This document shows positions 6,214 to 63,985 of a DNA stretch of 64,000 bases, piece after piece. The notes beneath the pieces were generated by a model, which ran no database searches, was not told the DNA's origin, and saw nothing but the letters and a program-made list of their open reading frames with translations. Position 1 is the stretch's first letter. Each line of letters opens with the position of its first letter. A program made the position numbers and the translations under genes. The stretch is from Cephalotus follicularis (taxonomy: Eukaryota > Streptophyta > Magnoliopsida > Oxalidales > Cephalotaceae): NCBI GenBank assembly GCA_001972305.1, contig BDDD01005219.1:95096-159095 (forward strand), read 5' to 3'.

Positions 6214-6327
6214 CAGTCGGCTGTTCTCAAGAGCAGTCGGCTGTTTTGGTTGAGCAGTCGACTGTTTTGTCTTAACAGTCGACTGGATAGGGTTAAGCAG
6301 TCGACTGCCATGAAGAACAGTCAACTG
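6214..6327. repeat. Array of CAGTCGACTG palindromes, B 3' LTR, cluster 1
   Basis: Six units (CAGTCGGCTG twice, CAGTCGACTG three times, CAGTCAACTG once) start at 6214, 6234, 6255, 6276, 6298 and 6318. The spacings are 20, 21, 21, 22 and 20 bp. The spacer sequences differ, so only the palindrome and its phase are conserved. Confidence 0.9.
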
Positions 6328-7386
6328 CTTCTGCCCAGAAAATGCAGGCAGCAGCAGTTTTTATGCATTTCAATGTTCAATTTCTAACCAATTCCACACA
6401 TGCAATCATACAGAAAATAACATACATGATATGCATAATATATCTTCCATAAACATGTCATTACCCCTACCTCTATTGCTATCCCAAGATCAACTGTAAT
6501 TGATCTTTCTCTTTGAGTTTCCAAAGCCTTTTCACCAATAATCCTTCAATTCCAGCAAGATAAATCTATATCATGCATGCATGTGGTTCAGTCATTAACT
6601 AGAAGGTTTGACTAATTATCAGCTACCATTACTACTTCAACAGTAGCCTATTATCAATTCCTTAAGTCTTAGATTCTCATTTACAACTTCCTCTTGAACT
6701 CCTGGCCAATATATTTTTCACTTCCAGATTCCTTGTTCCTAATGGGTGAACAGAAGGTGTATATAGATACTTAAGGGAAAGCTTATATCATGACAACTAA
6801 CCACAACAATAATCCAAATTAGAGGCTACAATCTCCATTTATACTTGAACCATTTATCACCTTCTATTTCAATTTTAGAAGTTGTTAATTCTTAACCATG
6901 TTAACAGAAGACATTAACATCCTCCTAGGTACAGTATCATCACCTTAACAGTGAGTTCGGATTGAGAACTTACCAAGAAAAACCACAGCTTTAATTCCCT
7001 CTTTGAGCTCTATTTCATCAACATGTAAGCTCCATTAACTTGTTAACATTTCTCCAGCAACTCCCTTTTCTCTCAGTGTTTTTCTAACACACACGCACAG
7101 CTCTAACAGCTGATATAAAGGTCTAGGAACCTCTGAATTCTCCAGGTTCTCACAACTCAGCTTCTCTCATTCCTTCTCTCATTCACATGCATTTCTCTTT
7201 CTCTCTTCTTTCTATCTCTTTCTCACCTTTCTCTTCTTTCCATTCTGGTTGCAGGTTTAAGAGAACATGCAAGCACTCTATTTTGCATGCCCTGGCAGCT
7301 ACTATCACGCATGACACCTGCCCCTCATGCAATGCCCCTTGGATTCAGTCTCACAAGCATGCACAGACACCTGTTCTGTACCGATC

Positions 7387-7465
7387 CAGTCGACTGTCTT
7401 TAGCAGGCTGTCGACTGTGCACACACGCATCAGATAGTCGACTGTTCCCCTGTGACAGTCGGCTG
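7387..7465. repeat. Array of CAGTCGACTG palindromes, B 3' LTR, cluster 2
   Basis: Four units start at 7387, 7408, 7435 and 7456 (spacings 21, 27 and 21 bp). They are CAGTCGACTG, CTGTCGACTG, TAGTCGACTG and CAGTCGGCTG. The corresponding cluster in the other LTR is at 13899-13977. Confidence 0.88.
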
Positions 7466-7636
7466 TCGATGGTTGCTTTTAGTTATCTTAAGTTTGATTT
7501 TCACCAATTGTTCCTCCATTCATCCCAAGCATTTACCAAACACAGAAATCATAATAATTGGACATTAAATTCAAGTGAGTGTACATTTTATTAATCAACA
7601 TTACAATGTACATGAATTGAATTTGCGGTTATTACA

Positions 7637-12724: not shown

Positions 12725-12838
12725 CAGTCGGCTGTTCTAAAGACCAGTCGGCTGTTTTGGTTGAGCAGTCGAATGTTTTGTCTTAACAGTCGACTGGATA
12801 GGGTTAAGCAGTCGACTGACATGAAGAACAGTCAACTG
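12725..12838. repeat. Array of CAGTCGACTG palindromes, B 5' LTR, cluster 1
   Basis: Units start at 12725, 12745, 12766, 12787, 12809 and 12829 (spacings 20, 21, 21, 22 and 20 bp), identical phasing to the other LTR. One unit has decayed to CAGTCGAATG. Confidence 0.9.
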
Positions 12839-13898: not shown

Positions 13899-13977
13899 CA
13901 GTCGACTGTCTTTAGCAGGCAGTCGACTGTCCACACATGCATCAGACAGTCGACTGTTCCCCTGTGACAGTCGGCTG
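13899..13977. repeat. Array of CAGTCGACTG palindromes, B 5' LTR, cluster 2
   Basis: Units start at 13899, 13920, 13947 and 13968 (spacings 21, 27 and 21 bp). The first three are perfect CAGTCGACTG, better preserved than their partners at 7387-7465. Confidence 0.88.
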
Positions 13978-21881: not shown

Positions 21882-22568
21882 TGTCACACCCCGTTTCCAA
21901 CTTAAGACAACATATAGAGTGGTAAGGCAACCACCATAAAATAATCTAGCTCATGTGAAAATACCAATAATTTAAAACCTTCGATAGCGGAAGCAACAAC
22001 AACATAAATGACCCGAATATAAAAACACATCACGCATCCCATACTACGTGATGCCCGACAATCCAAACATAACTGTTGATCGCCCAAAATGGAGTGTGAG
22101 ATAATAATACAATACAAGATAACAAAATATCCAACGTTACAAAATCCGAGTAACATGATAAATGTTCAATAACCAAAATACATAAATAAGAGAAATAACA
22201 AGTCTTCTCTTTAAATCTCCGTGCATGCTCCATGTCAAGATCACTTCATCAATCTGTTACAGTAGGGGTTAGCCTTTGTCCTCACTCGGCTAAGTGAATA
22301 AACCCATAAATACAGTTCAGGTCATAAGATAATGAGTATCATGAATGAATGCATAATGATGCAGTATGACATGAAATTTCCAAGTAAATATACTTTCATA
22401 TATAAAAATATATGTATGATCATAGTACAAGTATAACTCATAGGTTATATCAACAGAAGCAAGAAATATTTTCCAAAAAAGGAACCAGACAAGCCAAACG
22501 TCATGACCGTCGCCACCTCCTGGCCCCAACGTCATGCACTCTTACTCCACCCCCGGGAGCAAGTCCAA

Positions 22569-22684
22569 TAAGTTGTGCTAAACCAACAGCAAGTTACTTG
22601 CACAGTGGCTAAGTAATCAACAAGTTATTAGCACGGTGGCTAATAATTAAAAAGTTATTAGCACGGCGGCTAATAATCAACAAG
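22569..22684. repeat. Tandem hairpin array, D 3' LTR
   Basis: Units starting AAGTT lie at 22591, 22622 and 22652 (31 and 30 bp apart). A partial unit before them has lost one arm by an 11-bp deletion relative to the other LTR. Full units have arms TTATTAGC and GCTAATAA around ACGGTG or ACGGCG. The unit at 22591 has TTACTTGC and GCTAAGTAA around ACAGTG. Confidence 0.85.
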
Positions 22685-23165
22685 CACAAGCAATTCAAGT
22701 ACAAGTCAGTCAATTACATATAATTACTTGATCAAAACATATTTGTTTAAAATATATTATTCCGTTCACAAGTTGTAATAAGTTATAAACTTAAAGCAAT
22801 ACATTTTTCTGTCGTTGGAAATACTTCCCCATTCATTTCGAAAATATATACATTCATAAATTATACATTTTCGCAAATTGCATTTGGTTTCATAATCAAC
22901 CCCTTAAAACATGTCATTGGAAATACTTCCCCATTTACCTCGAAAATATATAATTTCATATGTTGACAAATATACATTTTCGTACACAAATGATCATAAT
23001 AATCATGCAAGCTTTTCAAAATGGTTAACACTTTCAAGTAAGCAACCATAATGCAATTCATAGTAACAATGCAAACATATGCTCAGAATGCATCTAGGTT
23101 CGTTTCTAGAGTCATTTCGGGTCTAACGGGCCCCATTCGAGCAAAACTCCACTGTCCAGGAGGAA

Positions 23166-23290
23166 AGGCGTCGACGTCATTCCTTAAGGCGTCGATGTCT
23201 TTTAGCCTAAAGCGTCAATCCTAAGTACAAATACTTCCAGGCGTATTCGAACCAAAGACGTCGATGTCTTTACAAAGACGTCGATGTCTT
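23166..23290. repeat. GTCGAT/GTCGAC palindrome array, D 3' LTR, cluster 1
   Basis: Cores start at 23170, 23191, 23214, 23260 and 23280 (spacings 21, 23, 46 and 20 bp). The best unit reads AAAGACGTCGATGTCTTT: arms AAAGAC and GTCTTT around GTCGAT. Confidence 0.85.
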
Positions 23291-23510
23291 TTTCATACCA
23301 GAGAGCATCAGCTCGCGAGTCTTGATTCTAGAGGGTAGAATCCAACCTTTTAATCCCTCATATAAACGAATCCCACTTCCTAACGTATAAGGTATGCTAC
23401 TGGTGAATAGGAACACAACCAGAACATCAATTCGAATTTAAACAGGCGATTCCATGTGGCTAAATAGCCATCCGAAATGAACATCACAGTTCTATAATTT
23501 CCCAGAAAAG

Positions 23511-23592
23511 GAGTCGATGTCTTTATAAAAGCATCGATACCCTTCATGTTTTCACACGAAGACGTCGACGTCTTCACATAGACGTCGATGTT
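23511..23592. repeat. GTCGAT/GTCGAC palindrome array, D 3' LTR, cluster 2
   Basis: Cores start at 23513, 23533 (ATCGAT), 23564 and 23584, giving two pairs 20 bp apart separated by 31 bp. The third unit is a perfect palindrome, GAAGACGTCGACGTCTTC. Confidence 0.85.
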
Positions 23593-24333
23593 TTTACAAC
23601 CCAGAACGTGTTTTCTACGAATTTAACATACCAAGCCATTATCAAATCCATCCTTTACACAATCAATTCACATATTCATGTAATCATACATGCAAAATAA
23701 ACTCAGTGTATCACAGTAACACTACAACAAGTCCAGAATCACAATCCAGTCGTTAACATGCAATTCACCATGCTATTCATTAACTTAGAACTCAAAATGC
23801 ATATATAAATCCATCACTTTCCCCTACCTTATTGTTCCAAGTTAGGAACTGGAAAGTCCACCTCTTTAAGTCTCCAAGTTCTGGCTACCAGCAGCTCCAA
23901 GGTTCCTCAGCAACTGCCACCCACGAGCTCCAATCTTCCAGCTTATTCCAAGCTCAACAATGGCACACACACACACTGTTTTATTCCCTCTCTTTCTTCT
24001 GGTGTTATAAAACGAGAGAGACAAGTGGGGAGGGATATTCTTATGCAGATGGCTTCCCCAACCAGCTTTCTGCTGACATATAACAGGCCACCCCCGAGAT
24101 CTCTCCCACTTTCCAGGCTTCTGCACTTTCTTTCTATTTTCTATTCATCCCTTTTTGCAGGTTGCATGTTAGGCTGCATATTCCTTGCATGTTCCAGGTG
24201 ATGGGCATGTTTTAGTATTCCTGACAATGCTTAACATGTCATAATGCACTTGTAAAGGCATTAGGTAAAGCCCCAAAAGAATCTCCTTGCATGTTACTCT
24301 GCCGACGAAGAACGTGATAGCCATTCTTTACAA

Positions 24334-24486
24334 AGGCGTCGACGTCTTTCCTTAGACGTCGATGTCATTTCTCTTTTCGTAAGAAGGTGTCGATGCCTTC
24401 TCTCAAGGTCGACGTGTATGCTCGTGCATTCACGTGTATTTCAATCGTTAAAGGAGTCGACGTCTTTCCAAAGACGTCGATGTCTT
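24334..24486. repeat. GTCGAC/GTCGAT palindrome array, D 3' LTR, cluster 3
   Basis: Cores start at 24338, 24358, 24389, 24408, 24455 and 24475: three pairs with internal spacings of 20, 19 and 20 bp. Confidence 0.85.
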
Positions 24487-24656
24487 TATCCCAGAACAAC
24501 GTCGTTTCAAGCTTTTAACACACATTCCATCTCCAGAGCCATAAGTAGGGTTTGTAAGCATCTTTTGAGTTCAAAAATTCAATATTCTCATAGATCCAAG
24601 TTTAAGATTACATCATAAATTGAAATATTACACTCAGGAAAATACCGGGCGTTACA

Positions 24657-30667: not shown

Positions 30668-30794
30668 AAAGGCGTCGACGTCATTCCTTAAGACGTCGAT
30701 GTCTTTTAGCCTAAAGCGTCAATCCTAAGTACAAATATTTCCAGGCGTATTCGAACCAAAGACGTCGATGTCTTTACAATGACGTAGATGTCTT
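30668..30794. repeat. GTCGAT/GTCGAC palindrome array, D 5' LTR, cluster 1
   Basis: Counterpart of 23166-23290 with the same order of units. One unit has decayed to GACGTAGATG. Confidence 0.85.
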
Positions 30795-31013: not shown

Positions 31014-31097
31014 GGAGTCGATGTCTTTATAAAAGCATCGATACCCTTCATGTTTTCACACGAAGACGTCGACGTCTTCACATAGACGTCGATGTTT
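31014..31097. repeat. GTCGAT/GTCGAC palindrome array, D 5' LTR, cluster 2
   Basis: Counterpart of 23511-23592: two pairs of palindromes, the third unit again a perfect GAAGACGTCGACGTCTTC. Confidence 0.85.
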
Positions 31098-31836: not shown

Positions 31837-31993
31837 CAAAGGCGTCGACGTCTTTCCTTAGTCGTCGATGTCTTTTCTCTTTTCGTAAGAAGGTGTCGAT
31901 GCCTTCTCTCAAGGTCCACGTGTATGCTCGTGCATTCACGTGTATTTCAATCCTCAAAGGAGTCGACGTCTTTCCAAAGACGTCAATGTCTTT
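31837..31993. repeat. GTCGAC/GTCGAT palindrome array, D 5' LTR, cluster 3
   Basis: Counterpart of 24334-24486 with three pairs; several CpG sites in the units have changed (GTCAAT, GTCCAC). Confidence 0.83.
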
Positions 31994-32607: not shown

Positions 32608-35598
32608 CTGTCACTTTCCTTAAGCCACCGTTTGCATATGCCTGCATGTTCTCCCCTGTTTTTCTGTATTTCTTGTTATTTCCATCGGCAATATGTAAGG
32701 GTTGGGTTGCTGGTTGTGTTGACATCATTGTTGCCATAAATTTATCACCTGGGTTCATGCTCGGCACTAGGATCATCGTGCATGTGCGTGTGTGTTGGTT
32801 GTGTGTATGTGCTGTGAAAACAGAGTATATGTTGTGCATGTGTTGTGTGCATGTTGGGTGTGTTTTGCATGTTGTATGTGCTGTGTATGTGGACAGTGTG
32901 TGTCGTGTGGGTGTGTATATTGTGTAGGCAGAGTATTTGCATGTAATATGAGTATGTGTGCTATGTGTGTGTTGCATGTTGTATGTGTATGTGTGCAATG
33001 TATGTTTTGCATGTAATATTCGTATGTGTGCGTGAATGTGGTGGAGGCAGAGTAAATGTTATTTTTTGTGTGTGCAGTACGGTTATGTGCAACCTTTGTG
33101 TGAGCGTTTGCATGTGGTGTATGTTGTAGTGAATGAACCGTGTGTGTTATGAAGGAATTGTACGTATTAAGCAAGTGTGCTGTGTGTGTGAGTTAAGTGT
33201 AGACAGTGTGTGTGTGTGTGTGTTGTGCATGCCATGGGTGCTGGGTTAGAGTTGTGCGTATAGCATTCTGTTATGGGCTGTTAAACCAGACTCTTCTTCA
33301 AAATACATGTAAAGCGCCGACTCTCTTCCCCTTTGTTTCATCAAAGCATGGACGCCTTCCCTTAATTGTGCATAATCCTGTTTTGTTTATGTAAAGCGTT
33401 GACGCCATCCTGCTTTGTTTCTGTAAAGCGTCGACGCTCTGTCCTCAAAGTTTGAGTTTTTTTAAAATGTTTAAACGTCGCATGTGTCCTGATAAACGTT
33501 GACGCTTATGCTAGAAAGAGTCGACGCTTTCGGCCTTGTTCTAGATAAAGCGTTGACGCTTTTGCAAGGATTTTGTAATTTCTTATTTTGAATTGTTGTT
33601 TTTATATCTTTTAGATAACTGTACCAACGGAAGTGCTATGTAGGGTTTTTAATTTTCTCTCGAGGATAATTTTTGTGTTTACGTAAGGCACGGATTCTAT
33701 CGTTCTTTGGCTATCTGATTTTATTGAAACAATCCAGTTTCACTTTTATGATTAATGTACGGATTATTCTTTCGTTCTTGGATACTCCCTTCGATTTTAT
33801 TTGAATAGAATCAATTTTACTGTTTAATGATTATGTACGGATAACTCTTTCTTCGATACCCTCCCTTGTTGGTTTTATTAAAATGAGGGTTACTTTGCTT
33901 TAAATAATAAAGTACAGATGTTCTTCTTCCCTTGGCTACCTTAATCTGGTTTTTGATTGAGACAATCCAATTTCACCTTTATGATATTCGAACTCTATTA
34001 TGTTTTGGATTTTGATATGTTTTGCAATAAAGTCACTGTGATATTTTATGAGATAAATATTTCTGACTTTTCAGCTATGATTTGTTTACGAAATGTTATG
34101 TTATTATCTCTTTTATTGTGAAAAAGAAAATGAGTTAATTTCTAACTGTGAAAATGTCCGGATTTCTTCGTTTTTGGGTTTTACCCCTCGTCTCTATCGA
34201 AATGAATTTTTGTATGTTTATATATGGGTTCTTCGTTTTGTCTTTTATGATTCGATATGTTTAAATAAAATCCGTTCTATTACTTTTTGGTGTAAAATTA
34301 AATATTACTGATTTTATAGATTGAGCATGATTTTCACCTATGAAAGCATGCTAAATTTTTATGATACAGATTTTGTTAAAAGCATGAAATTCAATTACGA
34401 AAGTATGCAAATTTTTAAGATATGATTTGGTTTTGTAAGTAAACCAATAATTGGAAATGATTTTTGATAAAATCATTATTTTTGCAATACTGAGAATATA
34501 TTGTTTCCTACCTATGGAGGTACCATAGGCATGTCGTAGGCCTGGCACGGGGACATGACACTTCCGTAGTAGTGTGACTAGTCTACGGTGTTTCTCAATG
34601 TTATGAATAAATCCCATGAGGTGGATTTATGGATCCGTTATGTATGATAGAGGCGTATGAGTCGAGTCTAGTTATATGTTATGTGATATGTTATGGATTG
34701 TGGGAATTGATTGTGTAGTGTCGTACACGTCATTCTGTTTGGCGAGTGGATTCTGTAGGATCCCTTTCATATATTAATTTATTTAATTCGATATTGCATC
34801 TCTCAGTACAAGACATGGATTTAAGAAAAGTTTTGGAAACTGATATTCTTTGATATATATCTTTCACTTAATGCGGAATTGTGAATATATATATATATAT
34901 ATGACATAAGCATCTTTTGATTTGCATAAACCGGTTTACTTATGAATTGTTCTGTTTTTGAAAAGATTTGTATTGTTCCATTTCGTAAACTATTTCGTAA
35001 ATTTTTTTGTTTCGTAAAATGTTTTATTTCGTATTATGAAGTTTTGAAAACTGTTTTGTATCGGACACTATTTTGTTTCGTATTTGTTTTGATTCGCAAT
35101 CATTTTATTTGGTTTCGTCTCGTAACTGTTATGATTTTGGGAATTGATCTATTGCGTAATCTGTTTTGTTTCGTACTATTTTATGTTTCTATCTCCGTAC
35201 TAAGGTTTGCTCAGCTGCGTTGTTGTTTCCATGCGGCAGGTTATCCGGAGCTTTGGGGGCAAGTGTGATAAGAGAGCAACCTTTGACTTGAGGATTTTAT
35301 TGAATTAAATTCTTTTAGTAATGCTATGTTTTTTTCAGGACTATGATTTCTAGTTCTAGTTCTGTTATCAAATTATGTTTAGACCACCGCGTGTTAATTT
35401 GGAGACCAATTTGTTTATGAGCAAAATTTAAGTTTTGAATCTGACACTCTTTGTTTTATCAGTTCAATTGGAGACTTTATTACTGTTTAATGACATAGAT
35501 TTAGGATTTTCTGATATGTTTCGATTAGTTCGGTTTAGCGTGACATTTCCGGTTCTGAATCGGGGGTGACATCCTGATTCTGAACCGGTGGTGTCACA
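32608..35598 (+). mobile_element. C-family LTR, second segment
   Basis: It aligns with 37481-40437 from GTCACTTTCC to the end GGTGTCACA. It contains a TG-rich low-complexity stretch (about 32780-33240, repeated GCATGTAATATGCGTATGTG-like words), the GCGTCGACGC palindrome array (33310-33565) and an AT-rich 3' half. Near its end lie two blocks shared with J: CCTATGGAGG with GTCGTAGGCCTGGCACGG, and GGTTTGCTCAG with CATGCGGCAGGTTA. A primer binding site follows at 35603. Confidence 0.92.
33310..33565. repeat. GCGTCGACGC palindrome array, C left LTR
   Basis: Cores at 33316 (GCCGAC), 33398 (GTTGAC), 33430 (GTCGAC), 33498 (GTTGAC), 33520 (GTCGAC) and 33552 (GTTGAC). Key spacings are 32, 22 and 32 bp. 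Consensus arms are AAAGC and GCTTT or GCTCT around GTCGAC. Several cores show CpG to TpG change. Confidence 0.85.
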
Positions 35599-35602
35599 GT
35601 TA

Positions 35603-36508: not shown

Positions 36509-36522
36509 AAGGGGGGTGGAAA
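36509..36522 (+). other. Polypurine tract of C, right copy
   Basis: AAGGGGGGTGGAAA immediately precedes the TG of the right LTR at 36523. Confidence 0.75.
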
Positions 36523-39500
36523 TGTAATACCCATTTTTCCATATTAAATTTATTTTATTTGGACCCCTTCTAATTTTATTTTTTAGTGGACCGCCTATTT
36601 GTTTTAGATATGAATTACCCAAAATTTTGGTTTGTTTGGGCTAATTTAATTTTGAATTTTGACCAATAAACATATTTTGTAAGTGGTTAAAGAAAATATT
36701 TTTATTTCAAAGCCATTTATCATTTTCTCTTTTGAAAACTAAAATATCAATTTAAAAAGGGAATTGTTGCTTTTGTTTTAAAAACCAAATTATGCAGAAA
36801 ATCAATTTAAAAAGGAAAGTTTATTCCTTTGTTATTTTTTTCCCCTTTTATGCCGCCACCCTCTCTCCCTCAATCTCCTCCTTCCCAAAATGGTTTCTCT
36901 CCCAATCTCTCACTCACTCTCTCCCGCATCAACACTCTCTCTTTACCTCTCTGCACCGCGTTTTGCCCTCTCACTTATGCACTTTGCCGAAAATATCTCC
37001 TATGCATTACTCTCTTTTACATTTTTTGTGCTCCTTCACGCGTTTTTGCCTTATATTTTGGCCACCTTCTTTCTTTCTTTTTTTCATCTCCTTCATTCGT
37101 TTCTCTCTCACCCTCTGGAGAGCTCTCCCCCCCTCTCTCTCTTGGAAGCGCCATTGTTGCAGCTCAGAGGAAAGCTTCTTGCTCTGCCGCCCACAATCCT
37201 ACATCACTTTAGGTTCAATCTATTGCTTCATTGTGGTGATCCGATTCTTTTGATTTATACTGTAAATATATGTGTTAATCTCTCTTTGTCTCCCCTATTT
37301 CGACTCTCTCTCTCTCTCTCTCTCTCTCACTCACTCTCTCTCTCTCTCTCGCTCTCTCTCTCTCTTTTTCTTGGAGCCGACCAGTCACTGCAAGTCTCAG
37401 AATCCTCTGCGTTTCTCCTTCGGTTTGGCTTCATCCAGGTTCGTTCTTTATCCTGCTTTGATATGGAACTTTGAACCGTCACTTTCCTTAAGCCACCGTT
37501 TGCATATGCCTGCATGTTCCCCCCTGTTTTTCTGTATTTCTTGTTATTTCCATCGGCATCATGTAAGGGTTGGATTGTTGGTTGTGTTGACACCGTTGTT
37601 GCCATAAATTTATCACCTGAGTTCATGCTCGGCACTAGGATCATCCCGCATGTGCGTGTGTGTTGGTTGTGTGTATGTGCTATGAAAACAGAGTATATGT
37701 TGTGCATGTGTTGTGTGTGTTTTGCATGTTGTAGGTGTTGTGTATGTGAACAGTGTGTGTCGTGCGGGTGTGTGTGTTGTGTAGGCAGAGTATTTGCATG
37801 TAATATGCGTATGTGTGCTGTGTGTGTGTTGCATGTAGTATGTGTATGTGTGCAGTGTGTGTTTTGCATGTAATATGCATATGTGTGCGTGTATGTGGTG
37901 AAGGCAGAGTAAATGTTATTTTTTTGTGCGTGCAGTGCGGTTGTGTGCAACCGTTGTGTGACCGTTTGCATGTGGTGTGTGTGCAGTGAATGAGCCGTGT
38001 CTGTTGTGAAGGCAGTGTACGTATTAAGCAAGTGTGCTGTGTGTGTGAGTTAAGTGTAGACTGTGTGTGTGTGTGTGTGTTGTGCATGCCGTGGGTGCTG
38101 GGTTAGAGTTGTGCGTATAGCATTGTGTTATGGGTTGTCAAACCAGACTTCTTCTTCAAAATACATGGAAAGCGCCGACACTCTTCCCCTTTGTTTCATC
38201 AAACCGTGGACGTCTTCCCTCAGTTGTGCATAATCTTGTTTTGTTTGTGTAAAGCGTGGACGCCATCCTGCTTTGTTTCTGTAAAGCGTCGACGCTCTGT
38301 GCTCAAAGTTTGTGTTTTTTTTAAAATGTTTAAACGTCTCCTGTGTCCTGATAAACGTTGACGCTTATGGTAGAAAGAGTCGACGCTTTCGGCTTTGTTC
38401 TAGATAAAGCGCTGACGCTTTTGCAAGGTTTTTTAATTTCTTATTTTGAATTGTTGTTTTTATATCTTTTAGATAACTGTACCAACGGAAGTGCTGCGTA
38501 GGGTTGTTTGATTTTCTCTTGAGGATAATTTTAGTGTTTAATAAGGCACGGATTCTATCGTTCTTTGGCTATCTGATTGTATTGAAACAATCCAGTTTCA
38601 CTTTTATGATTAATGTACGGGTTATTCTTTTGCTCTTGGATACCCCATTCGATTTTATTTGAATAAAGTCAATTTTACTGTTTAATGATTATGTACAGAT
38701 AACTCTTTCTTCCATACCCTCCCTTGTTGGTTTTATTAAAATGAGGGTTACTTTGCTTTAAAGAATAAAGTACGAATGTTTTTCTTTCCTTGGCTATCTT
38801 AATCAGGTTTTTGATTGAGACAATCCAATTTCACCATTATGATATTCGACCTCTCTTATGTTTTGGATTTTGATATGTTTTGGAAATAAAGTCACTGTGA
38901 TATTTTATGAGATAAATATTTCTGACTTTTCAGCTTTGATTTGTTTACGAAATGTTATGTTATTATCTCTTTTATTGTGAAAAGTAAATGAGTTAATTTC
39001 TAATTGTGAAAATGTCCAGATTTCTTCGTTTTTGGGTTTTACCCCTCGTGTCTATCGAAATTAATTTTGGTATGTTTATGTATGGGTTCTTCGTTTTGTC
39101 TTTTATGATTTGACATGTTTATATAAAATCCGTTCTATTACTTTTTGGTGTAAAATTAAATATTTCTGATTTTATAGATTGAGCATGATTTTCACATATG
39201 AAAGCATGCTAAATTTTTATGATACAAATTTTGTTATGAGCATGATTTTCGATTACGAAATTATGCAAATTTTTGAGATATGATTTGGTTTTGTGAGTAA
39301 ACCAATAATTCGAAATGATTTTTTATGAAATCATTATTTTTGCAATATTGAGAATATATTGTTTCCTACCTATGGAGGTACCATAGGCATATCGTAGGCC
39401 TGACATGCGGACATGACACTTCTGTAGCAGTGTGATTAGTCTACGGCGTCTCTCAATGTTGTGAATAAATCCCATGAGGTGGATTTATGAATCCGTTATG

Positions 39501-43066: not shown

Positions 43067-45197
43067 CGTAACGCCCCCGACCCGAGCCCACCAATAGCTC
43101 AAAGCGAACCTCGAGGATCGGTCGCATTACGTTGGGTATGAAACGTTACAACCTTTGGTACTCTTCTCTAACAGTACATTACATCATAAATTTCATGTCT
43201 TGCAACATAATACATAATCTTAAATTCATACTTTACACATAATCATCTTATATAAAGATGTCATAACCATATCGTTGGTCTACATATACACAAGATCATC
43301 CTTCTACATAAACATATAATACAGCGGAAAAACTTTGTTCTTATTACATATCAAAACATTTATGCAACATCATTGCATAGCCTTTCTGTCACAAAAAATC
43401 CTTCTTAAGAGCTTCCTCTAATATCTTAATCTCCATTCATTCATTTCCTGAAAACATTTTATTTGAAAACAACATTGAAAGGAGTGAGCTCAAAATAGCC
43501 CAGTAACGTGCTTTTATAGTAAACACATTTCATCATAACATTTTTCTAGTCAAAACAAATAACTAGAACATTTCGTAAAACATATCACTTTTCTAATTAC
43601 AAGCTCGTAACTAGCACATTTCATAAACATAGAAGTCATGAAAACCTTAATGAACCCATTACACCGCTTCACCGGGGCATTGTGCACTCCCCGACTACTA
43701 TCCTCACATCACATGCATGTCCGTGAGCATCTCGCTCCATTAACATAGAGCATCTCGCTCCATTCCCCTTGGATCGCAATCCAAGGGTGGTTCATTCATC
43801 ATTTACTTCTAGTGATCAGCTAAAAGCATTCATAAAAATCATTTCAGATCATTTCTTTCACAATTCATAAACCTTTTCTCCTCATTTGAGTAATTGATTC
43901 AAACGAGTTCATAAAAACAGTTTTGCATAGCTTTGCTAAAACTAATAATTCATATAGAAATAAGCATTTTTAGATAAAACTTAAAACATAAACATTAAAG
44001 TAGACTTCTTTAAGAATTCATAAAGCTCAAGATCATGACAATTGGTTGAGAATTGAACCCGTTATGAATTTTTTAAAGTGGCTGGTTCCATATGAAAATA
44101 GGGCATGAGCAGTAAAATGAAACATCAATTCTCATCAAGAATTCGATAGAATTCCAAGATACATAAAACATAAAAGTTAAGGAGGACATATTAAGGTTTT
44201 CAAAACATCCAACCATTTAATTTTTCACCAAGAAAGGAGCAAGATATGATTTAAAGAAGTTGCTACATAATCCAGGAATAAAATAGTACCCAAAGAGCAA
44301 TTTAAAACATTGATTTTCATCAAGAAATCGATAGAATATTAAAACATCCAAAGCCTAAAATTTAAATAGGACATCCTAAAGTTTTCAGAACATTCAACCA
44401 TTCAAAAATTCATCAAGAATTGAGCAAGATATGAATAAAACAATCTACTGTAAAATTGGAAGCAAAAAAGATGATACTTTGTAGAAAATGGGTATAGAAT
44501 TTCCTTACATTGCTTTAAAATTTCTTTCTCTTTTGTCCTCCCACGAATTCTCCACTTCACTCTTAGTACGAGCACTTTCTTTCTCAACCAAAATGACTGA
44601 GTTCAACCCTCTTTGCCATTAAATAGAAGGATTACTTGGGAGGCAAGTCTTCTCCCCCTCTCACATGACTCAACTCCCTTTCTTGGCAGTCCATGTGCTC
44701 AAATTCAACCAATCCAAGTGATTACACCTGTTAGATCACCTGATAACATCTCATATCATCCTCCCCTGGCCTGCCACGTGTCCAAAATTAAAGATTGTTA
44801 CTCACAAAATGCCAAAAAGTCAGATTTTGCATTTTGTCGGTAGCTCAAAGCGTCGACGTTTTCTCCCTAAGCGTCGCCGGTCACGGGCTTGACCTGAGTT
44901 CTCCACTTCTATCCTAACTAAAGCGCTGACGTTTTCTTACAAAGCATCGTTGCTTTAAGTCTTCGTCCAGGTCAACTGACACACTTGACTTTAACGCGTC
45001 GACGTTTTCAATTAGAGCGTCGTCCGTTGCCCAAAGCGTCGACTCTCTTAATAAAATCGTCGGCGCTTTAGACATCTTTGTCAACTCTTAACCCTTTAGA
45101 TTGACGCTTTCAACATGACATTCATCCAATTGCCAATTTACACAATAGCAATCATTTTCCATAATTAATATCTTACATGGAAATTTGGGTCATTACA
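43067..45197 (-). mobile_element. Solo LTR G (F-related)
   Basis: A 2,131 bp LTR starts CGTAACGCCCCCGACCC (first T apparently mutated) and ends GGGTCATTACA. It is flanked by a perfect TACTT duplication (43062-43066 and 45198-45202). No interior or second LTR is present, so it is a solo LTR left by LTR-LTR recombination. In sense it contains TTGGATTGCGATCCAAGG and the GGGGAGTGCACAATGCCCCG block, both also in F (54790-54905), which shows the two LTRs are related. Confidence 0.88.
44845..45072. repeat. GCGTCGACG palindrome array, G solo LTR
   Basis: Cores at 44852, 44873, 44925, 44946, 44998, 45019, 45038 and 45059. They form pairs with spacings of 21, 21, 21, 19 and 21 bp, the pairs themselves being 52 bp apart. 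Arms are AAAGC on the left and GTTTT or GCTTT on the right. Confidence 0.85.
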
Positions 45198-50935: not shown

Positions 50936-51243
50936 AAAGAAGACGTCGATCCATAACAAAAGACGTCGATGTCTTTTGCTAAAAATTACATTTTGCTGAG
51001 ATGCGCGTGAAAGACATCGATCCCTATGATAAAAGGCGTCGATGCATTTTGGTCCAAAAGTTACAGGTCGATTTCGCACACAGCCGTCGATCCCTTTGAT
51101 GAAAGACGTCGATCCCTTTCTCATAGCTCTTGAAGGTAAGTTGCAATTCCCAGAAAAGACGTCGATCCTTAGCCAAAGACGTCGACGCGTTTACTGTAAA
51201 CCCAGAAAAGACGTCAATCCGTATCAACGACGTCAATGCTTTT
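50936..51243. repeat. GACGTCGAT palindrome array in M, absent from E
   Basis: Cores at 50945, 50965, 51016, 51038, 51086, 51108, 51161, 51181, 51213 and 51232, forming five pairs with internal spacings of 20, 22, 22, 20 and 19 bp. In E the flanks TCTATTTCTGCTG and ATTTCTTCAATCTTTAC-like sequence are joined with no array between them. Confidence 0.87.
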
Positions 51244-55585: not shown

Positions 55586-58310
55586 TGTAATACCCTACTC
55601 GTTCGTAAATATATTTTACGGATTTTATGTGTGTTGTCGGGCTTATAAATGTGTTTAATTTTAAAAGTCCAGTTGCCCTTTGTTTTGGGCTTATTTGATT
55701 TGGGCTAACTGATACCAGTCCAATTTTGGATACGTAATGTTATGTTGGGTTTGGATTTATTTTATCAAAATTTTATTTGATTAAAACAATTTATCTTTAT
55801 TTTTTTAAAAATCCTCTTTAATCCATTTTAACTTATTTATTTTATTTATTTTCTTATTTCCTTTTATTTTTCTTTTCCTTTTTCCTTTTCTTTCTTTTTC
55901 TTCTTTCTTTCCTATTCCTTCTTCCTCCTTCCACCCGAATTCTCCCACCTCTCATTACTATCACACGTTTTCTATATCTTCCTTCCATTCTTGTTTCCCA
56001 CAAATCCTCCTTTCTTCCTTTTCTAGCCGATTTTTGTCCCCTTTTCTCTTTGAAGAATGACATTGCCATTTATATGTTACCTCCTCTTCTTTGTTATGTC
56101 ACTGCCGATTCTGCCTTGTTATTGTGTGATCATCTGCTGTGTAATTCGTTCTTCAAAATTCGAAGAGGTAATCTCGATCCTTAGTTGTTTCTTTTGAGTT
56201 GAATTCATTGAGTTTGCTAAGCTTCTCTTTGTTTTGGTTTCCCTTGGTTCCTTTGGTCTCTGTTTTGTCACAGCAGATTGTGTGTATGTGTTAGTGTTCC
56301 TCCTGCTATTTTTCTGTGTCCTTAACATCACTACAGGTCAGTTAATTCGTCCCTTTTGTAATAGTTTTGTTGCAATGTTGTGAAAATTGAGTTATATGCT
56401 CTTTATGTCCTTTGAGTCTTGATTTCTGCTTAAACATGTTGTCATTGTGTTAATATGATTGTCAACATGTTTTGTACTCATAGATGTGTCATAAACTTGT
56501 TTTACAACATCTGTAATCGATTAGAAACAGAATCTGGACATATACATCCATTGTCTTCTTGCTTCCTTTTGTAAGTTAGATCACTGTCCAATTGTTTATA
56601 TGTCCTTTCTGTGTTTTTATGTCACCTACAAGTCATATATGATCATATGTTTAGGTCCATATGTCTCTAGTTTAATGTAGAAACCATTTGAACCGTTTTC
56701 AGTGGTGAATTTGTCGATATCCAACTGTTCTATCGCCCAAAACAGTCGGCTGTCTCTGTGGACAGTCGGCTGGAATGGTTGAGTAGCCGACTGCCACATG
56801 AATGCAGTCGACTGCTTTAGGTTGTGTAGTCGACTGGAGGGATGAACACAGTCAACTGTCTGCACTTTTAATTGAGTAGTTGACTGGACCTTTTGAATAG
56901 TCGACTGTCTTGCTTCCCCAGTCGGCTGGAGCCCTGTTTTAGTCGACTGTTTTGCCCTGGAATGTACTGTTTTCAACTGTTTTGATTCGTTTGATCCCCG
57001 AATCGATCCGAATCTTTTCCAAACACTGTCAAGAGTCTGTTTAATGCTTCTAATGTGTTTTAGACTCTTATACGTATGTTTCTGAATGCCTTTTAGATTG
57101 TTGTGCTTCAAGTGGATTCCATTTAAATTGTTTATTCGTAAGTACTTTGTGAGTGCGTAAGGTACGGATTTTCTGTTCCTTGGCTATCTGATATTCGAAC
57201 TGAAAACTGTTTTGCTAAACATCTTCGTTTATGAAATCAACGATGTTTTATGACTTTGACATGTTTTGAATTTAAAGTTGGTTTATGATTCCGACTTTAT
57301 TCATACGATATGAAATGATACGTTATGTTATGATACGATATGTTATGATACCATTGTAAGGGGTTTCCGAATATGTTGAGTGAAAACATATGTTATGTGA
57401 TTTTGAATTGATTTTGATAAATCAATATTTTTAAAATAAATACTGAGTATTGTACCCACCTATGGGGCGTATCCATAGGCACGTCGTAGGCCTGGCACGG
57501 GGACGTGACACTTCCGTAGCGGTGTGATTAGACTACGACATCTCTGAGTGTATGAACAAATCCCATGAGGTGGATTTGTGGATCTGCTATGTATGATAGA
57601 GGCGTATGAATCGATTCTAGTTTATGAGATCTTAGGTGAATTTAGATATATGGTCCGAGGTGTGATCGGATATGTGTATGTGAGAATTGACTTGTGTAGT
57701 GCCGTACACTTCAATTCTAGTGGGCATGTGGAATTAGTGCCTCCCTTGCCAAAATTTATGTTATGTGATATGTATATGGCTCAGTATGTTTTACGAACTG
57801 TGTTTTATGCACTATGATGTTTTATGTTTTAAAATGTTCCGTATTATTTCGAAAGATATGCAATTGTTATATGATTAAACTGTTTTAACTATTAAGATTT
57901 TCTGTGACGTTATTATTGATTTATTAATGTTTTTGAATTACCGTTTACTGTTTTATTTCCCTTATCCGTACTGAGGTTTGCTCATCCGCGTTTTTGTTTC
58001 CATGCGGCAGGTTTTCAGGAGCAGCGGGGGAAAGTATGATTGAGTGATGACCACTATATGTGTTGGATCCTTAGGAGAGTGATCCTTATTTTAAGCTTAG
58101 TGGTCAGAAACATGGATTATTATGTTTTATGTTTTTAAATTGGAACTGAATTATGTTTTAAGTTTTTCGCAACTACTTCATATGCTAAATGGTTAAGTTT
58201 TAATGTTTTGATAAGACTGCCACGTTTTGGCTGTTATTGGCTAATAAAGCAAACTTATGATTCGTTAAAAAAAATGTTTATGTTCAGATAAGTTAATGTT
58301 ATGCTATGAT
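55586..58310 (+). mobile_element. J LTR, diverged relative of the C LTR
   Basis: Starts TGTAATACCCTACTCG after TTAAT. It follows the C LTR in order: pyrimidine-rich zone (55850-55950), palindrome array, GGTACGGATT...TTGGCTATCTGAT, CCTATGGGG with GTCGTAGGCCTGGCACGG (57478), AATCCCATGAGGTGGATTTGTG, and GGTTTGCTCATC with CATGCGGCAGGTTT (57975). It is 1.2 kb shorter. The end is lost near 58310, where B-like sequence begins, so the right boundary is approximate. Its array has CAGTCGACTG units, unlike the GCGTCGACGC units of C. Confidence 0.75.
56743..56949. repeat. Array of CAGTCGACTG palindromes, J LTR
   Basis: Ten units start at 56743, 56763, 56784, 56805, 56827, 56849, 56877, 56898, 56919 and 56940. 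Spacings are 20, 21, 21, 22, 22, 28, 21, 21 and 21 bp. Units vary between CAGTCGGCTG, TAGCCGACTG, CAGTCGACTG, TAGTCGACTG and TAGTTGACTG. Confidence 0.9.
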
Positions 58311-60340
58311 ATGACCCTGTGATGAGAATGATTAAATATCTTTTGTTAATGGATTAGAATTAACAACCTTTGAATTCAAATGGGAAGTAGTGATTCAATT
58401 AAGTGAAATTGGTGACTATAACCTCTAAAATGGATTATAGATGTTGATAATGTTAGGATATATACTTAATGGTTCCTGAGTATGTATACATCTTCTGTCA
58501 ACACACTTAAGATCAATGAATCCTAGATTGAGTGGTACTTGACATGGAATTCAAAAGGGGAAATTGGAAAAGGAAAGTTTAAGACTTAAATGGAATAATG
58601 ATTAAACCACTGTTAGAGTTATTGAAACTTACTGGTACTGATGCATGTGTTCATAAACAAACATGCATAGATTGATTCTGCTGGAAATTGAAAGAGTGAT
58701 TGGTGAAACTGACTTGGAACTCAAAGAGAAAGATCAAACTCAATTGATCTTGGGATAGCGATTTGAGGTAGGTGTAATGATATGTTATGGAAGATATAGT
58801 ATGCATATAGTGTATGTCTATTTTCTGCATGATTACATGTGTTGAATTGATTGGAAATTGAATTGAAAGTGCATGGCTTGCTACTGCCTACATTTTTTGG
58901 GCAGAGGCAGTCGACTGCCACCCTTGACAATCGACTACTCAACCTATCCAGTCGACTGCCAAGGCAAAGCAGTCGACTACACAACCAAAGCAGTCGGCTA
59001 ATCTTGAGGGCAGCCGACTGTTCTGAGTAAATTTTCTGGTATAAGTCCTATTAAGGCCCAATTTTGAATGTAATGAACCTGGCCTCAATCCGGATGACTA
59101 GAACAGTTAATCCTGGCCTCATATACCATTACATTCCAAACTAAACAATGTACGCACTCCTTGTGAGAGTTGCATGTGAATTGACCATGTAGTGCCATTA
59201 TTGTGAATCCTTGCATTGCTACTAAATTGTGCTATTGTTAATGAATATACTACTGTCATGTTAGTATATACTGTTTTTGGTGCTATTGACACCACTACCA
59301 CTTGTATTCAATGATTGAAACCAATCATGGGCTATGTACCCAAATCATGATATTAACTATCATTTTCAAGTGAATAATTATTGCCAAATGAATTACTGAT
59401 TTTCCTCCTATATGAGAGCTACCTACTGTTTTGTTTCCCAAATTGGAAACCACTATTGAAATGAGATCGTTTTCCTCCGAAGAGATGTACGATAAGTGAC
59501 TTGTTATAGTTTCTAAAGAAAACTACTTTTATATTGCATATTATTGATATATGTGATATTATTATTGAAATGCTTGAATTGATTGTCTATGCTATTGCCG
59601 TGGTTGAGTGACGGAGGATGTCACTGACTACGGAATGTGATTCTGGGTGCCAGGAGTTGGCCAGAGTATCACCCAAGTGTTCTGCAACGCAGAAAGTGAT
59701 TGTTAAACTATCCGCCAACGCCGGTAGTAAGTGTTACCTTATCTATCATCTTTGGAGCGTAGGGTGATAGATAGGTGGTGCACAGTTGGTGCTAGGAGTT
59801 AGCGACAGGTGACACCCAAGTGAGTGTTGAATTGATTGTATCCTTGTGCGGTATTCTTGCATATGGATTGTTTATGGCCACTTGGCATGATTGCTTATAT
59901 ATTGGCTCATTTAAATGTTATTTTGATATAAACTGTCATACCTGTTGCATTCATATATTCTTTATCATACATTATCATTCTACTTAGCCAAGTGAGGACA
60001 ACGGCTAACCCCTACAATTACAGATTAAGCGAAGACTCGGAAGATTGCCGCTGAAGCTTGGAGAGCTTCTATTGTTATTTAAGGTTGTTATTTCATTAAG
60101 ATATATCGTATTGTATTGAACGGATCACATCCCGTATTGTGTTGTATTTTTCCTTTTATTTAAGGATATTGTTGGTTTTTCCCGCACGTTGTATGGGATG
60201 CGTGCGGATGACTTGTAATATATATTCCGGCTTATCGAATGCTTCCGCAAATTTGTTTATAAATTGTGCTGGAATATTATTTATGATATCACCACATATG
60301 CTTGTCCATTTTACGTGAATGGAAACAGCGGGGTGTGACA
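58311..60340 (+). mobile_element. K LTR, 5'-truncated relative of the B LTR
   Basis: From about 58318 the sequence follows the reverse complement of the B LTR: AGAATTAACAACCTTTGAATT, AACTCAAAGAGAAAGATCAA, GATCTTGGGATAGCGAT, the palindrome array, GTACGCACTCCTTGTGAGAG, CCAGGAGTTGGCCAGAGTATC, ACAACGGCTAACCCCTACAAT. It ends GGGGTGTGACA at 60340. The first ~700 bp of the B LTR equivalent are absent. Sense is plus. It is followed by copia L coding sequence, not by a primer binding site, so it is a 3' or solo LTR. Confidence 0.8.
58908..59020. repeat. Array of CAGTCGACTG palindromes, K LTR
   Basis: Six units start at 58908, 58928, 58949, 58970, 58991 and 59011 (20, 21, 21, 21 and 20 bp). It is the counterpart of B cluster 1, in opposite orientation. 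Confidence 0.9.
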
Positions 60341-61284: not shown

Positions 61285-63102
61285 AAGAGTCTATCTATTG
61301 TTAGCATACGTAGTGATCACGACAAAGAATTTGAAAATCTTGGTTTTGAAAACTTTTGTGATGAACTAGGTATTCACCATAACTTCTCGGCTCCTAGAAC
61401 TCCTCAACAAAATGGTGTTGTTGAGAGGAGGAATAGAACCCTAGAAGAAATGGGGAGAACCATGTTGTGCGAAAATAATTTGCCAAAATATCTTTGGGCG
61501 GAAGCCGTAAACACCGCATGCTACATAATAAATAGAGTCATGATTAGATCTATTTTAAAGAAAACCCCATATGAACTTTTCAATGATAGAAAACCAAGTG
61601 TTAGTCACTTGAGACCTTTTGGATGCAAAGTTTTCATTTTAAACAATGGGAAAGATAATCTTGGAAAATTTGATGCCAAGAGTGATGAAGGAATCATTCT
61701 AGGATACTCTTTAAATTCTAAGGCATATAGGGTGTTTAATAAAAGAACCTTAATTATTGAAGAGTCTATTCATGTATTGTTTGAAGAGTCTAATAGTGCT
61801 CCGAGAAAGGTAGATGTTGATGATGATGTAGGTATATTGGAGCAAATAAAAAGCTTGGACATCAACAAAGAAGATGGTGAAGTTGACAACGTTGAAGAAG
61901 AAGGAGAACATGAAGAAGAAATTCAACAAGTTCAAGTCACCAAGGAGCCAATAGCTAGAAGAGAAAGAGAGTACGTAAAAGACAACGAGGTAATCGGTAA
62001 TCCTACCGAGGGGGTAAGAACTCGTTCCGCTCTTAGGGAGTATTGTGATAATGTAGCTTTTATTTCCAATATCGAACCCAAAAATATTTTAGATGCTTTA
62101 AATGATGATTGTTGGATTGTGGCTATGCAAGAGGAACTAAACCAATTTGACAAAAGTAATGTTTGGTCATTAGTTCCTAGGCCTAAAAATCAATCCATCA
62201 TAGGAACAAAATGGATTTTTAGAAATAAAATGGATGAAAATGGGTTGGTTATTAGAAATAAAGCTAGATTAGTTGCACAAGGTTATAGTCAAGAAGAAGG
62301 CATTGACTATGATGAAACCTTTGCTCCGGTAGCTAGATTAGAAGCAATTAGATTGTTAATGGCCTTTGCTTGTTTTAAAGGTTTTAAATTGCATAAAATG
62401 GATGTCAAAAGTGCATTATTAAATGGCATTATAAATGAGGAAGTTTATGTAAAACAACCTCCGGGATTTGAAAATATGCATTTTCCCGATCATGTTTTTA
62501 AACTATCTAAAGCACTTTATGGTTTAAAGCATGCACCAAGAGCTTGGTATGAAAGGATTTCAAAATTTCTCTTGGAAAATGATTTCAAAAGAGGTTTAGT
62601 TGATAAAACACTTTTTGTTAAAACCAAACTTGATGATATCCTTATTGTACAAATTTATGTAGATGACATTATATTTGGTTCTACTAACGATTCTCTTTGT
62701 GTTGAGTTTGCTAACACTATGCAAGGTGAATTCAAGATGAGTTTGGTGGGAGAACTCAAGTATTTCCTTGGATTTCAAATCCAACAAGGAAATGAAGGCA
62801 CTTTCATCAACCAATCCAAATACACCAAGGACCTACTCAAAAGATTTGGAATGGAACACTCAAAGCCTTGCAAGACTCCAATGAGCATTACAACCAAATT
62901 TGACAAGGATGAGAATGGTAAAGAGGTAGATCAAAAATTATATAGAAGCATGATAGGATCACTCCTTTACCTTACCTCTAGTAGACCGAACATAATGTTT
63001 AGTTTATGTCTTTGTGCTAGGTATCAATCATCACCTAAAGAATCTCACTTAATTACGGTGAAGCGAATCTTTACCCTTATTAGGATTGTTTTATTCGAAT
63101 GA
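61285..63102 (+). pseudogene. pol: L integrase end and reverse transcriptase (Sirevirus-like copia)
   Basis: After the 1-bp shift the frame holds the second and third integrase catalytic residues (IRSDHDKEFEN; RTPQQNGVVERRNRTLEEM), then LWAEAVNTACYIINR and FGCKVFILN. An acidic linker follows (NVEEEGEHEEEIQQ). RT comes next: WIVAMQEELNQFDKSNVWS, GTKWIFRNKMDENG, RLVAQGYSQEEGIDYDETFA, MDVKSALLNGIINEEVYV, ALYGLKHAPRAWYERIS, and the catalytic IYVDDIIFGSTN with both Asp present. It runs through KYTKDLLKRFGMEHSKPCKT and IGSLLYLTSSRPNIMF to VKRIF, then shifts near 63070. 550 codons are open without a stop, so L is fairly recent. Confidence 0.9.
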
Positions 63103-63583
63103 TTCATTGTTTAATTTGCATGCCTATTCCGATGCCGATTATGGTGGTTGCAAGCTACATAGAAAGAGCACTAGTGGCACTTGCCAATTTCTAGTAAATT
63201 CTTTAGTGTCTTGGTTTTCCAAGAAACAAAATAGTGTAGCTCTTTCTACCACCGAAGCCGAATATGTAGGGGCTGAAAGTTGTTGTGCACAAGTCTTGTG
63301 GCTAAAGCAACAACTTTGTGACTTCGAAATTAGCATTAGCAATGTATGCATAAAATGTGATAATACTAGTGCTATCAACTTGAGTAGAAATCTCGTTCAA
63401 CACTCTAAGTCTAAGCATATTGGAATTAGACATCATTTTCTTAGAGACCATGTTGAAAAGGGTGACATTTTCCTTGAATATATTGACACTTTGAACCAAG
63501 TTGCAGATATATTCACGAAGCCGCTAGACAATGAAAGATTCTGCACAATGCGAAGCGAGCTAGGTATGCAAAATCCCTCCTAA
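63086..63583 (+). pseudogene. pol: L RNase H and pol C-terminus
   Basis: The frame starts (from a TTG, after a small indel) with LHAYSDADYGGCKLHRKSTS, the RNase H Asp motif. It continues with ALSTTEAEYVGAESCCAQVL, IKCDNTSAINLSRN, SKSKHIGIRHHFLRDH and VADIFTKPLDNERFCTMRSE, stopping at 63581-63583. This is the standard end of a copia polyprotein, and the catalytic residues are kept. Because of the shift near 63070 it would not be translated with RT from this copy. Confidence 0.88.
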
Positions 63584-63985
63584 ATCATTATATGTGTTAT
63601 TGTGATGCTTTATAATTTTTGATTGAATTGATTGAAAAATGTTTTGAAAATTCATCATGCATTTAAACATTGAGTATTTAACTCAATGACACAAATTAGC
63701 TCATGTACCTAGGTTGCTATTAGTCCATAAAAGTTAACCAAAGGTTTGCAAATCAAATTGGATTGGCATTGTCTGCATTTCCAAATTCTGTAGAAAACAG
63801 CCGACTAGACAATTTGTCCAGTCGACTGCCTGCCATCCAGTCGACTGGCATTAAAAGCCCAGTCGACTGGAAGTGCGGGAATCAGGGTTTTAAAACCCGA
63901 ATTCCCTTCTGATTTCTCACTTCTCTCCCAAATTAAAAAACGCCCAAAACCTAAACTCTCTCAATTCAAACCTGCATTCAACCTC
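63584..63985 (+). other. L spacer between pol and a downstream ORF
   Basis: About 400 bp without a coding frame. AT-rich at first, it then holds a CAGTCGACTG array (63798-63869), a TTCTCACTTCTCTCCC pyrimidine stretch and CTAAACTCTCTCAATTC. The latter look like the leader of a transcript for the downstream ORF (inference). Confidence 0.55.
63798..63869. repeat. Array of CAGTCGACTG palindromes in the interior of copia L
   Basis: Four units start at 63798 (CAGCCGACTA), 63819, 63838 and 63860 (all CAGTCGACTG), spacings 21, 19 and 22 bp. They are outside any LTR seen in the window. Confidence 0.87.

What the first reader, a model, noticed from the sequence alone, without database searches (positions are those of the whole stretch)
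6214..63869. Phased GTCGA-centred palindrome arrays in nearly every retroelement family of the window
Seen directly: clusters of short palindromes with core GTCGAC or GTCGAT occur in B (6214-6327, 7387-7465 and the other LTR), C (33310-33565, 38170-38420), D (three clusters per LTR), G (44845-45072), M (50936-51243), F (one pair), J (56743-56949), K (58908-59020) and L (63798-63869). Unit starts measured by hand are mostly 19-22 bp apart, most often 20 or 21; larger gaps are often near 31-32 bp. Spacer sequence is not conserved, only palindrome and phase. 21 and 31.5 bp are two and three turns of B-DNA, so all units would face the same side of the helix. Inference: binding sites for a dimeric host protein used as enhancer or silencing platform, or RNA hairpins in the LTR transcript. 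I know of no described element of this kind, but cannot search.
Basis: partly seen in the sequence, partly recalled or inferred. Interest (0 to 1): 0.88.

Follow-up and report, generated by a model that had tools for sequence, protein, structure and literature searches.

The report
Phased enhancer-site arrays in plant retrotransposons
Many different jumping genes in this plant genome carry rows of the same short DNA word, repeated about every 21 letters, mostly pointing toward their own promoters and apparently kept by selection, which looks like a shared on-switch read by a protein that is still unknown.

Summary
GTCGAC pairs with starts 16-26 bp apart number 178,594 in the 1.58-Gb assembly, against 2,533 for the reversed pattern. 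The first 100 listed (one contig) all lie 19-23 bp apart, 59 at exactly 21. In 22 blindly chosen 10-kb stretches, 132 of 271 sites are in phase; random placement gives 4.3.

The units are constrained between lineages: 85% identical between related LTR families, against 59% for spacers and 66% for flanks. Among 20 copies of one family all three classes are 92%.

(1) Units are polar: variants reduce mainly to RYCGAC, read in the element's sense strand 47 times to 3. (2) In the two elements with clear boundaries the array is in U3, its last unit 45 and 98 bp before a TATA box. (3) A companion motif, CCCAGAA, sits at fixed offsets at some array edges.

Best explanation: homotypic enhancer arrays in the U3 promoters of copia and gypsy elements, bound by a host factor. 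RYCGAC is the catalogued barley CBF/CRT core, but ACCGAC never occurs in phase, so the binder stays open. A new variant of a known kind.

The parts
4878..7636 (-). LTR of element B (element reads on the minus strand); partner LTR 11390-14148
   Evidence: Self-BLAST 96.9%; PBS-like TGGTATCAGA on minus strand at 11385
6214..6327 (-). Array of 6 units in B (spacing 20,21,21,22,20; the sixth is decayed, GTCAAC)
6108..6116 (-). TATA-like CTTATATAC 98 bp downstream of the array in sense; candidate only
   Evidence: similar in K (CTCATATAC), not in E
6334..6340 (+). Companion motif CCCAGAA at array edge
7387..7465 (-). Second array in B LTR (21,27,21)
12725..12838 (-). B array, other LTR
13899..13977 (-). 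B second array, other LTR
21882..24656 (-). LTR of element D; partner 29374-32161
   Evidence: PBS-like minus at 29370
23168..23288 (-). D array 3, type GACRTCGAC
23511..23591 (-). D array 2 (20,31,20), bracketed by CCCAGAA at 23501 and 23600
24336..24483 (-). D array 1 (20,31,19,48,20), CCCAGAA at 24490
30672..30771 (-). D array 3, other LTR
31015..31095 (-). D array 2, other LTR, CCCAGAA at 31005 and 31104
31842..31969 (-). D array 1, other LTR
33316..33557 (.). Sparse decayed array, type AAAGCGTCGACGCTTT, in element C
38174..38384 (.). Same in the other C LTR
44852..45064 (.). Sparse decayed array G
50943..51237 (.). Array M, GACGTCGATCC type, with CCCAGAA at 51149 and 51201 inside it
56743..56949 (.). 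Array J, 10 units (20,21,21,22,22,28,21,21,21)
58908..59020 (+). Array K, 6 units, in an LTR-like stretch related to B's LTR (77.7%) in the opposite orientation
63798..63869 (+). Array L, 4 units, about 117 bp upstream of an ATG at 63986; its copy in L022 precedes an ORF with a weak Transposase_32 match

Best explanation
The arrays are homotypic enhancer arrays in the U3 promoter of LTR retrotransposons of both superfamilies. Each unit is a near-palindrome whose essential part is mainly RYCGAC read in the direction of transcription, with one of two main flank sets: CAG[T/C]CGACT[G/A], or AAAGAC[A/G]TCGAC[G/C][T/C]CTTT. Successive units are about two helical turns apart, so a host DNA-binding factor could bind side by side on one face and drive a TATA promoter some 45-100 bp beyond the last unit. 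Shown by computation: the arrays, their spacing, their polarity, constraint between lineages with none among copies of one family, and position upstream of TATA in the clearest elements. Inferred: binding, activation, and that one factor or a few related ones serve all families. A CBF/DREB-type AP2 protein is the best single candidate but only about 20% likely.
For: Genome excess 178,594 vs 2,533; 100 of the first 100 listed pairs at 19-23 bp. Between families, K, E, N vs B pooled: units 0.853, spacers 0.592, flanks 0.664 (Fisher P 2.5e-7 for units vs spacers, 1.5e-6 vs flanks, positions pooled and not independent). 20 family copies: 0.919, 0.921, 0.919. LTR pairs of one insertion: B 0.969/0.966/0.970; D 0.958/0.983/0.980. 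Central CpG unchanged in 5 of 6 between-family comparisons of array units (the sixth, K/N, 8 of 10 positions), other LTR CpGs 0.64-0.83. In-phase variants: GTCGAC 118, ATCGAC/GTCGAT 64, GCCGAC/GTCGGC 44, the CpG-decay form GTTGAC/GTCAAC only 15. Polarity 47:3 in 17 oriented arrays, LTR duplicates included; 4 of 5 further arrays with an outward TATAAAW agree, L025 does not. L003: units 4554-4893, CTATAAAAGG 4938, PBS 5471, copia gag ATG 5524. L009: units to 8706, CTATAAAAGG 8804, PBS 9343, copia gag 9399. [CG]TATAAAW[AG] pointing away from arrays in 5 of 39, toward in 0 of 39, random mean 1.17, P 0.004. L003 and L012 share R-U5 at 82-84% but have different U3 arrays.
Against: No expression, binding or methylation data. 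The looser TATAAAW test is not significant: 8 of 39 vs 5.7 expected, 6 of 39 toward; the stricter test was chosen after it. B and D each have further arrays far from the candidate promoter, and D has no good TATA close by. M vs M2 shows no unit excess (0.75, 0.763, 0.842). With B's decayed sixth unit included, central CG identity for K, E, N is 0.853 (34 positions), and in the 20 copies 0.883 against 0.95 for 40 flank CpG positions. Array indels are not significantly rarer than elsewhere (P 0.23-0.42), so the phase itself is not proven selected. 27-29 bp spacing breaks whole-turn phasing. ACCGAC, the standard DREB core, occurs 0 times in phase. ATCGAT, not RYCGAC, occurs 12 times in phase vs 0.9. 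Polarity could partly be inherited within lineages.
Confidence: 0.7

Rival explanations
1. Anti-silencing arrays: sites for a sequence-specific protein that removes DNA methylation or blocks silencing, as VANC proteins do on VANDAL transposons.
For: VANC targets form short motif tandem repeats in non-coding parts of transposons and turn over quickly (PMC5735166, passages). Here a central CpG is kept between families in 5 of 6 comparisons.
Against: No candidate binder was found, but only 28 ORFs were scanned with Pfam. Sites are shared by copia and gypsy elements, unlike the element-specific VANC system. Position upstream of TATA is equally explained by an enhancer.
Confidence: 0.12
2. RNA structure: units pair with one another in element RNA and act in packaging, dimerisation or processing.
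For: RNA of 10 arrays folds better than 60 shuffles each, z -2.0 to -8.9.
Against: That follows from any repeated palindrome. Arrays are upstream of TATA in L003 and L009, so absent from the 5' leader, though U3 is still in the 3' end of the RNA. Complementarity stops near 6 pairs. Sense-strand GCCGAC gives A-C mismatches between units where the antisense form would give G-U. RNA does not explain a 21-bp spacing.
Confidence: 0.07
3. Neutral remnants of a simple tandem repeat (about 21-bp minisatellite) whose spacers have decayed.
For: Spacer words recur in related families; N has 4 units where B has 6; polarity could be inherited by unit duplication; M/M2 shows no unit excess.
Against: In the B-K-E-N group units are far more conserved than spacers, and spacers diverge more than the rest of the LTR. 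Units contain a CpG, normally a fast-decaying site, yet mostly keep it between families. Three flank types share the core.
Confidence: 0.06
4. Host silencing platform: a host repressor recognises the arrays.
For: Arrays are common: 14 of 22 blindly chosen stretches have one. Tandem repeats often attract silencing (passage in PMC5735166).
Against: An element gains by losing such sites, yet they are kept between lineages and show no constraint among copies of one family.
Confidence: 0.05

Closest known systems
Tnt1 BII boxes and Tto1 13-bp element (tobacco copia U3 cis-elements)
   Same: Short cis-elements in the LTR promoter that bind host factors or give stress response; U3 evolves as an exchangeable module (PMC3316501, PMC1838419, passages; the Tto1 element seen only as a reference title in PMC10794571).
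   Different: Those are single families; here one core with one main spacing occurs in copia and gypsy elements, with up to 16 units per array, genome-wide.
CBF/DREB (CRT/DRE) sites in plant transposons
   Same: RYCGAC is catalogued as CBFHV, 'CRT found in barley' (PMC4482647, one passage). DREB1D sites are associated with plant LTRs (PMC11656987), A/GCCGACNT was found in most stress-associated maize TEs (PMC4287451), and Rider has a CBF site in U3 (PMC6762207). All seen as passages.
   Different: ACCGAC is absent in phase; fixed palindromic flanks; phased arrays. Rider did not respond to cold.
VANDAL/VANC motif arrays
   Same: Short motifs in tandem arrays in non-coding transposon DNA, fast turnover (PMC5735166, passages).
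   Different: DNA transposons with a self-encoded binder; no such protein seen among the 28 ORFs scanned here.

Membership tests
CBF/DREB (CRT/DRE) regulatory sites | Core RYCGAC/RCCGAC | tested here: inconclusive
   79 of 96 sense-oriented units (collected with a pattern of RYCGRY plus a few decayed forms) are GTCGAC, ATCGAC or GCCGAC, but ACCGAC is 0 in phase vs 1.84 expected
CBF/DREB (CRT/DRE) regulatory sites | Bound by a CBF/DREB protein | not testable with these tools
   no binding data
CBF/DREB (CRT/DRE) regulatory sites | Cold or drought induction | not testable with these tools
   no expression data
U3 enhancer repeats of LTR retrotransposons | Repeated short sites inside the LTR upstream of the core promoter | tested here: met
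   L003 and L009 anatomy; B and D arrays inside LTRs. Start sites themselves not mapped; many of the 39 arrays not assigned to an LTR
U3 enhancer repeats of LTR retrotransposons | Sites kept by selection in active lineages | tested here: met
   for the B-K-E-N group; exception M/M2
U3 enhancer repeats of LTR retrotransposons | Raise transcription in reporter tests | not testable with these tools
   needs bench work
VANC-type anti-silencing arrays | Element-encoded binder | tested here: inconclusive
   Pfam on 28 ORFs gave retroelement domains, weak Transposase_32, other sub-cutoff matches, or nothing; not exhaustive
Simple tandem repeat | Spacers conserved with the units | tested here: not met
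   spacer identity within arrays 0.33 (125 pairs) vs 0.28 for random pairs

The most novel reading that the evidence does not exclude
One host transcription factor, or a small family, has become the shared master activator of a large part of the LTR retrotransposons in this genome: copia and gypsy lineages have independently built or exchanged U3 modules made of the same oriented, about 21-bp-phased RYCGAC code, in alternative flank types, some bracketed by a second motif, CCCAGAA.
Probability: 0.35. Interest if true: 0.85.

Novelty: new variant of a known kind. Interest (0 to 1): 0.68.

Why it matters
Retroelement promoters are known to diversify quickly in U3. Here different elements appear to have settled on one oriented, phased binding-site code found over a hundred thousand times in a large plant genome. 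If one factor reads it, the activity of much of the genome's retroelement load could be tested by changing one host gene, and each new insertion would place a ready enhancer near genes. The contrast between units constrained in evolving lineages and neutral decay among family copies also gives a clean way to find functional sites in LTRs.

Tried and rejected
DREB/CBF as a firm identification: weakened by the absence of ACCGAC in phase. Strict dimer palindrome: weakened by polarity. RNA hairpin: see rivals. Loose TATAAAW enrichment: not significant. Indel scarcity in arrays: not significant. Coding origin: spacings of 20, 22 and 28 shift the frame; an ORF across array J found no protein relatives (11 candidates, none at E <= 0.01). 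Viral contigs with two array patterns: no match. Literature, listings only: no paper held LTR retrotransposon, palindromic and GTCGAC together; none held all five terms; CAGTCGACTG is in 29 papers, and the 20 listed show no plant retroelement title; RYCGAC with retrotransposon and long terminal repeat is in one, on WRKY genes; one search gave two papers not on plant retroelements; one search matched 59 papers (20 listed) and 27 (8 listed), from which I looked up six papers by passages. These searches cover an open-licence library only. The orientation of CCCAGAA relative to sense differs between elements, so I could not settle whether it is a second factor's site or an ancestral spacer.
Full report
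Setting. The window is a stretch of nested LTR retrotransposons in a 1.58-Gb assembly of 9,746 contigs. It is a plant by inference from the element types and genome; the species is not identified. Self-comparison gives LTR pairs B (4878-7636 / 11390-14148, 96.9%), D (21882-24656 / 29374-32161, 97.4%) and C (about 32590-35568 / 37458-40432, 92%), plus a family A without arrays. B and D read on the minus strand, with gypsy-type domains (RVT_1 in both; RVP_2 and Retrotrans_gag in D) and a PBS-like word beside one LTR each; a sub-cutoff chromo match lies at 4505-4879. A copia pol lies at 60380-63099 plus.

Is it there, and beyond chance? Yes. GTCGAC occurs 39 times in the window (5.9 expected) and GTCGAT 38 (9.1), but ATCGAC only 4 (8.9), a first sign of orientation. 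Genome-wide, GTCGAC pairs with starts 16-26 bp apart number 178,594 vs 2,533 for the reversed pattern, and 27-37 bp apart 35,522 vs 643. The first 100 listed pairs of the first search, all on contig C1, lie at 19-23 bp, 59 of them at 21; of the first 51 plus-strand rows of the second, 34 lie at 27-29. Of 23 fetched 10-kb stretches away from the window (216 kb), 15 hold an array of at least 3 units, and 161 of 305 sites are in phase against 5.8 for random placement. One of them, L003, lies where one search had already shown hits; without it the figures are 14 of 22, and 132 of 271 against 4.3.

What the unit is. Around any unit, the hexamers enriched at 19-22 bp are GTCGAC (118), ATCGAC/GTCGAT (64) and GCCGAC/GTCGGC (44). 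The product of CpG decay, GTTGAC/GTCAAC, is seen 15 times and other one-base variants at most 6 times. With a wider anchor set and identical contexts removed: GTCGAC 106, ATCGAC/GTCGAT 56, GCCGAC/GTCGGC 54, GTTGAC/GTCAAC 16, ATCGAT 12, ACCGAC 0. Oriented by PBS, coding sequence, TATA or homology, 17 arrays (LTR duplicates included) read RYCGAC in the sense strand 47 times and antisense 3 times. Of five further arrays with an outward TATAAAW, four agree and L025 does not (my comparison). Base counts of 96 sense-oriented units give two flank types, CAG[T/C]CGACT[G/A] and AAAGAC[A/G]TCGAC[G/C][T/C]CTTT; C and G show a third, AAAGCGTCGACGCTTT. Most arrays are of one type by a simple flank rule, with a mixed one in L003 7492-7672 that keeps the spacing apart from one gap of 51.

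Selection. Across the two LTRs of one insertion, units, spacers and the rest are alike (B 0.969, 0.966, 0.970; D 0.958, 0.983, 0.980), and so they are across 20 family copies (0.919, 0.921, 0.919). Between related families the picture changes: K, E and N against B give units 0.853, spacers 0.592, flanks 0.664 (P 2.5e-7 and 1.5e-6 on pooled positions). Pairwise values are: units 0.76-0.97, spacers 0.52-0.69, rest 0.67-0.79 for the five comparisons within the B-K-E-N group. M vs M2 is an exception for the whole unit (0.75, 0.763, 0.842), though its central CpG never changes. So, at least in the B-K-E-N group, the units are held between lineages and decay like other sequence in individual copies. 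That the spacing itself is selected is suggested by its sharpness but not proven: indels in arrays are not significantly rare.

Where it lies. The clearest element, L003, has an LTR starting at 4376, units from 4554 to 4893, CTATAAAAGG at 4938 (45 bp after the last unit), PBS at 5471 and a copia gag from 5524. L009 has type-B units to 8706, CTATAAAAGG at 8804 (98 bp), PBS at 9343 and a copia gag from 9399. L012, reversed, has CTATAAATAG about 98 bp from its array. L003 and L012 are 82-84% alike in R-U5 but BLAST finds no match between their U3 arrays, which differ in type, so U3 modules turn over as a block. A gypsy gag lies 748 bp after the L025 array. Arrays also precede ORFs with weak Transposase_32 matches, below Pfam's cut-off (L003 7791, L022), and L lies about 117 bp before an ATG. 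A strict TATA word points away from arrays in 5 of 39 and toward them in 0 (random 1.17, P 0.004); a looser word shows nothing. Many of the 39 arrays were not assigned to an LTR.

Companion motif. CCCAGAA occurs 21 times near arrays vs 0.9 expected, at 16 of 48 clusters (two or more in-phase units; window and 20 stretches). Of 14 cases with a unit to its right, the nearest starts 9 bp on in 4 (type A) and 12 bp on in 7 (type B; two of these are the two LTRs of D); of 21 with a unit to its left, 11 lie 13-16 bp after it. In L004, L017, N (L022) and D it brackets both ends of the array in the same orientation. 13 + 9 = 22 is one period, so it may be an old spacer or a second factor's site.

Reading. 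The evidence fits homotypic enhancer arrays in U3. RYCGAC is listed as CBFHV (PMC4482647, one passage), and CBF/DREB sites are known in plant LTRs, but the missing ACCGAC and the fixed palindromic flanks leave the binder open. RNA folding is strong (z -2.0 to -8.9) yet follows from the palindromes themselves.

Novelty. Repeated cis-elements in U3 and motif arrays in transposons are known; a single oriented, about 21-bp-phased code across copia and gypsy elements on this scale did not turn up in the listings, which cover an open-licence library only.

Noticed in passing
window 6334, 23501, 23600, 24490, 51149, 51201; L004 9500/9719; L017 1846/2065; L022 9657/9741: CCCAGAA lies at fixed offsets beside arrays and, in four elements, at both ends in the same orientation; neither the cause nor the function is known.
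   Followed up: partly
L003 4376-5470 and L012 (reverse strand, array side near 2916): Two LTRs with homologous R-U5 (82-84%) but unrelated U3 arrays of different type: modular U3 exchange.
   Followed up: partly
window 6171 (query position 272): Eight of the 46 listed matches to the B array region start at the same point, 43 bp before the array; five of them continue beyond it only as a weaker separate piece, as if LTRs recombine there.
   Followed up: no
L003 7492-7882, window 63798-63986, L022 1535-2219: Arrays directly upstream of ORFs with weak Transposase_32 matches (below Pfam cut-off; the window copy itself not scanned), with a pyrimidine-rich leader.
   Followed up: partly
window 35568-37458: Element C has an internal region of only about 1.9 kb; two ORFs (210 and 230 aa) there have no Pfam match.
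   Followed up: no
27-29 bp gaps in type-A arrays (B 7410-7437, J 56851-56879, rows): The longer gap often carries similar words (such as CACGCATCAG, or TGCATGCTGGTTTGAG), perhaps another site.
   Followed up: no
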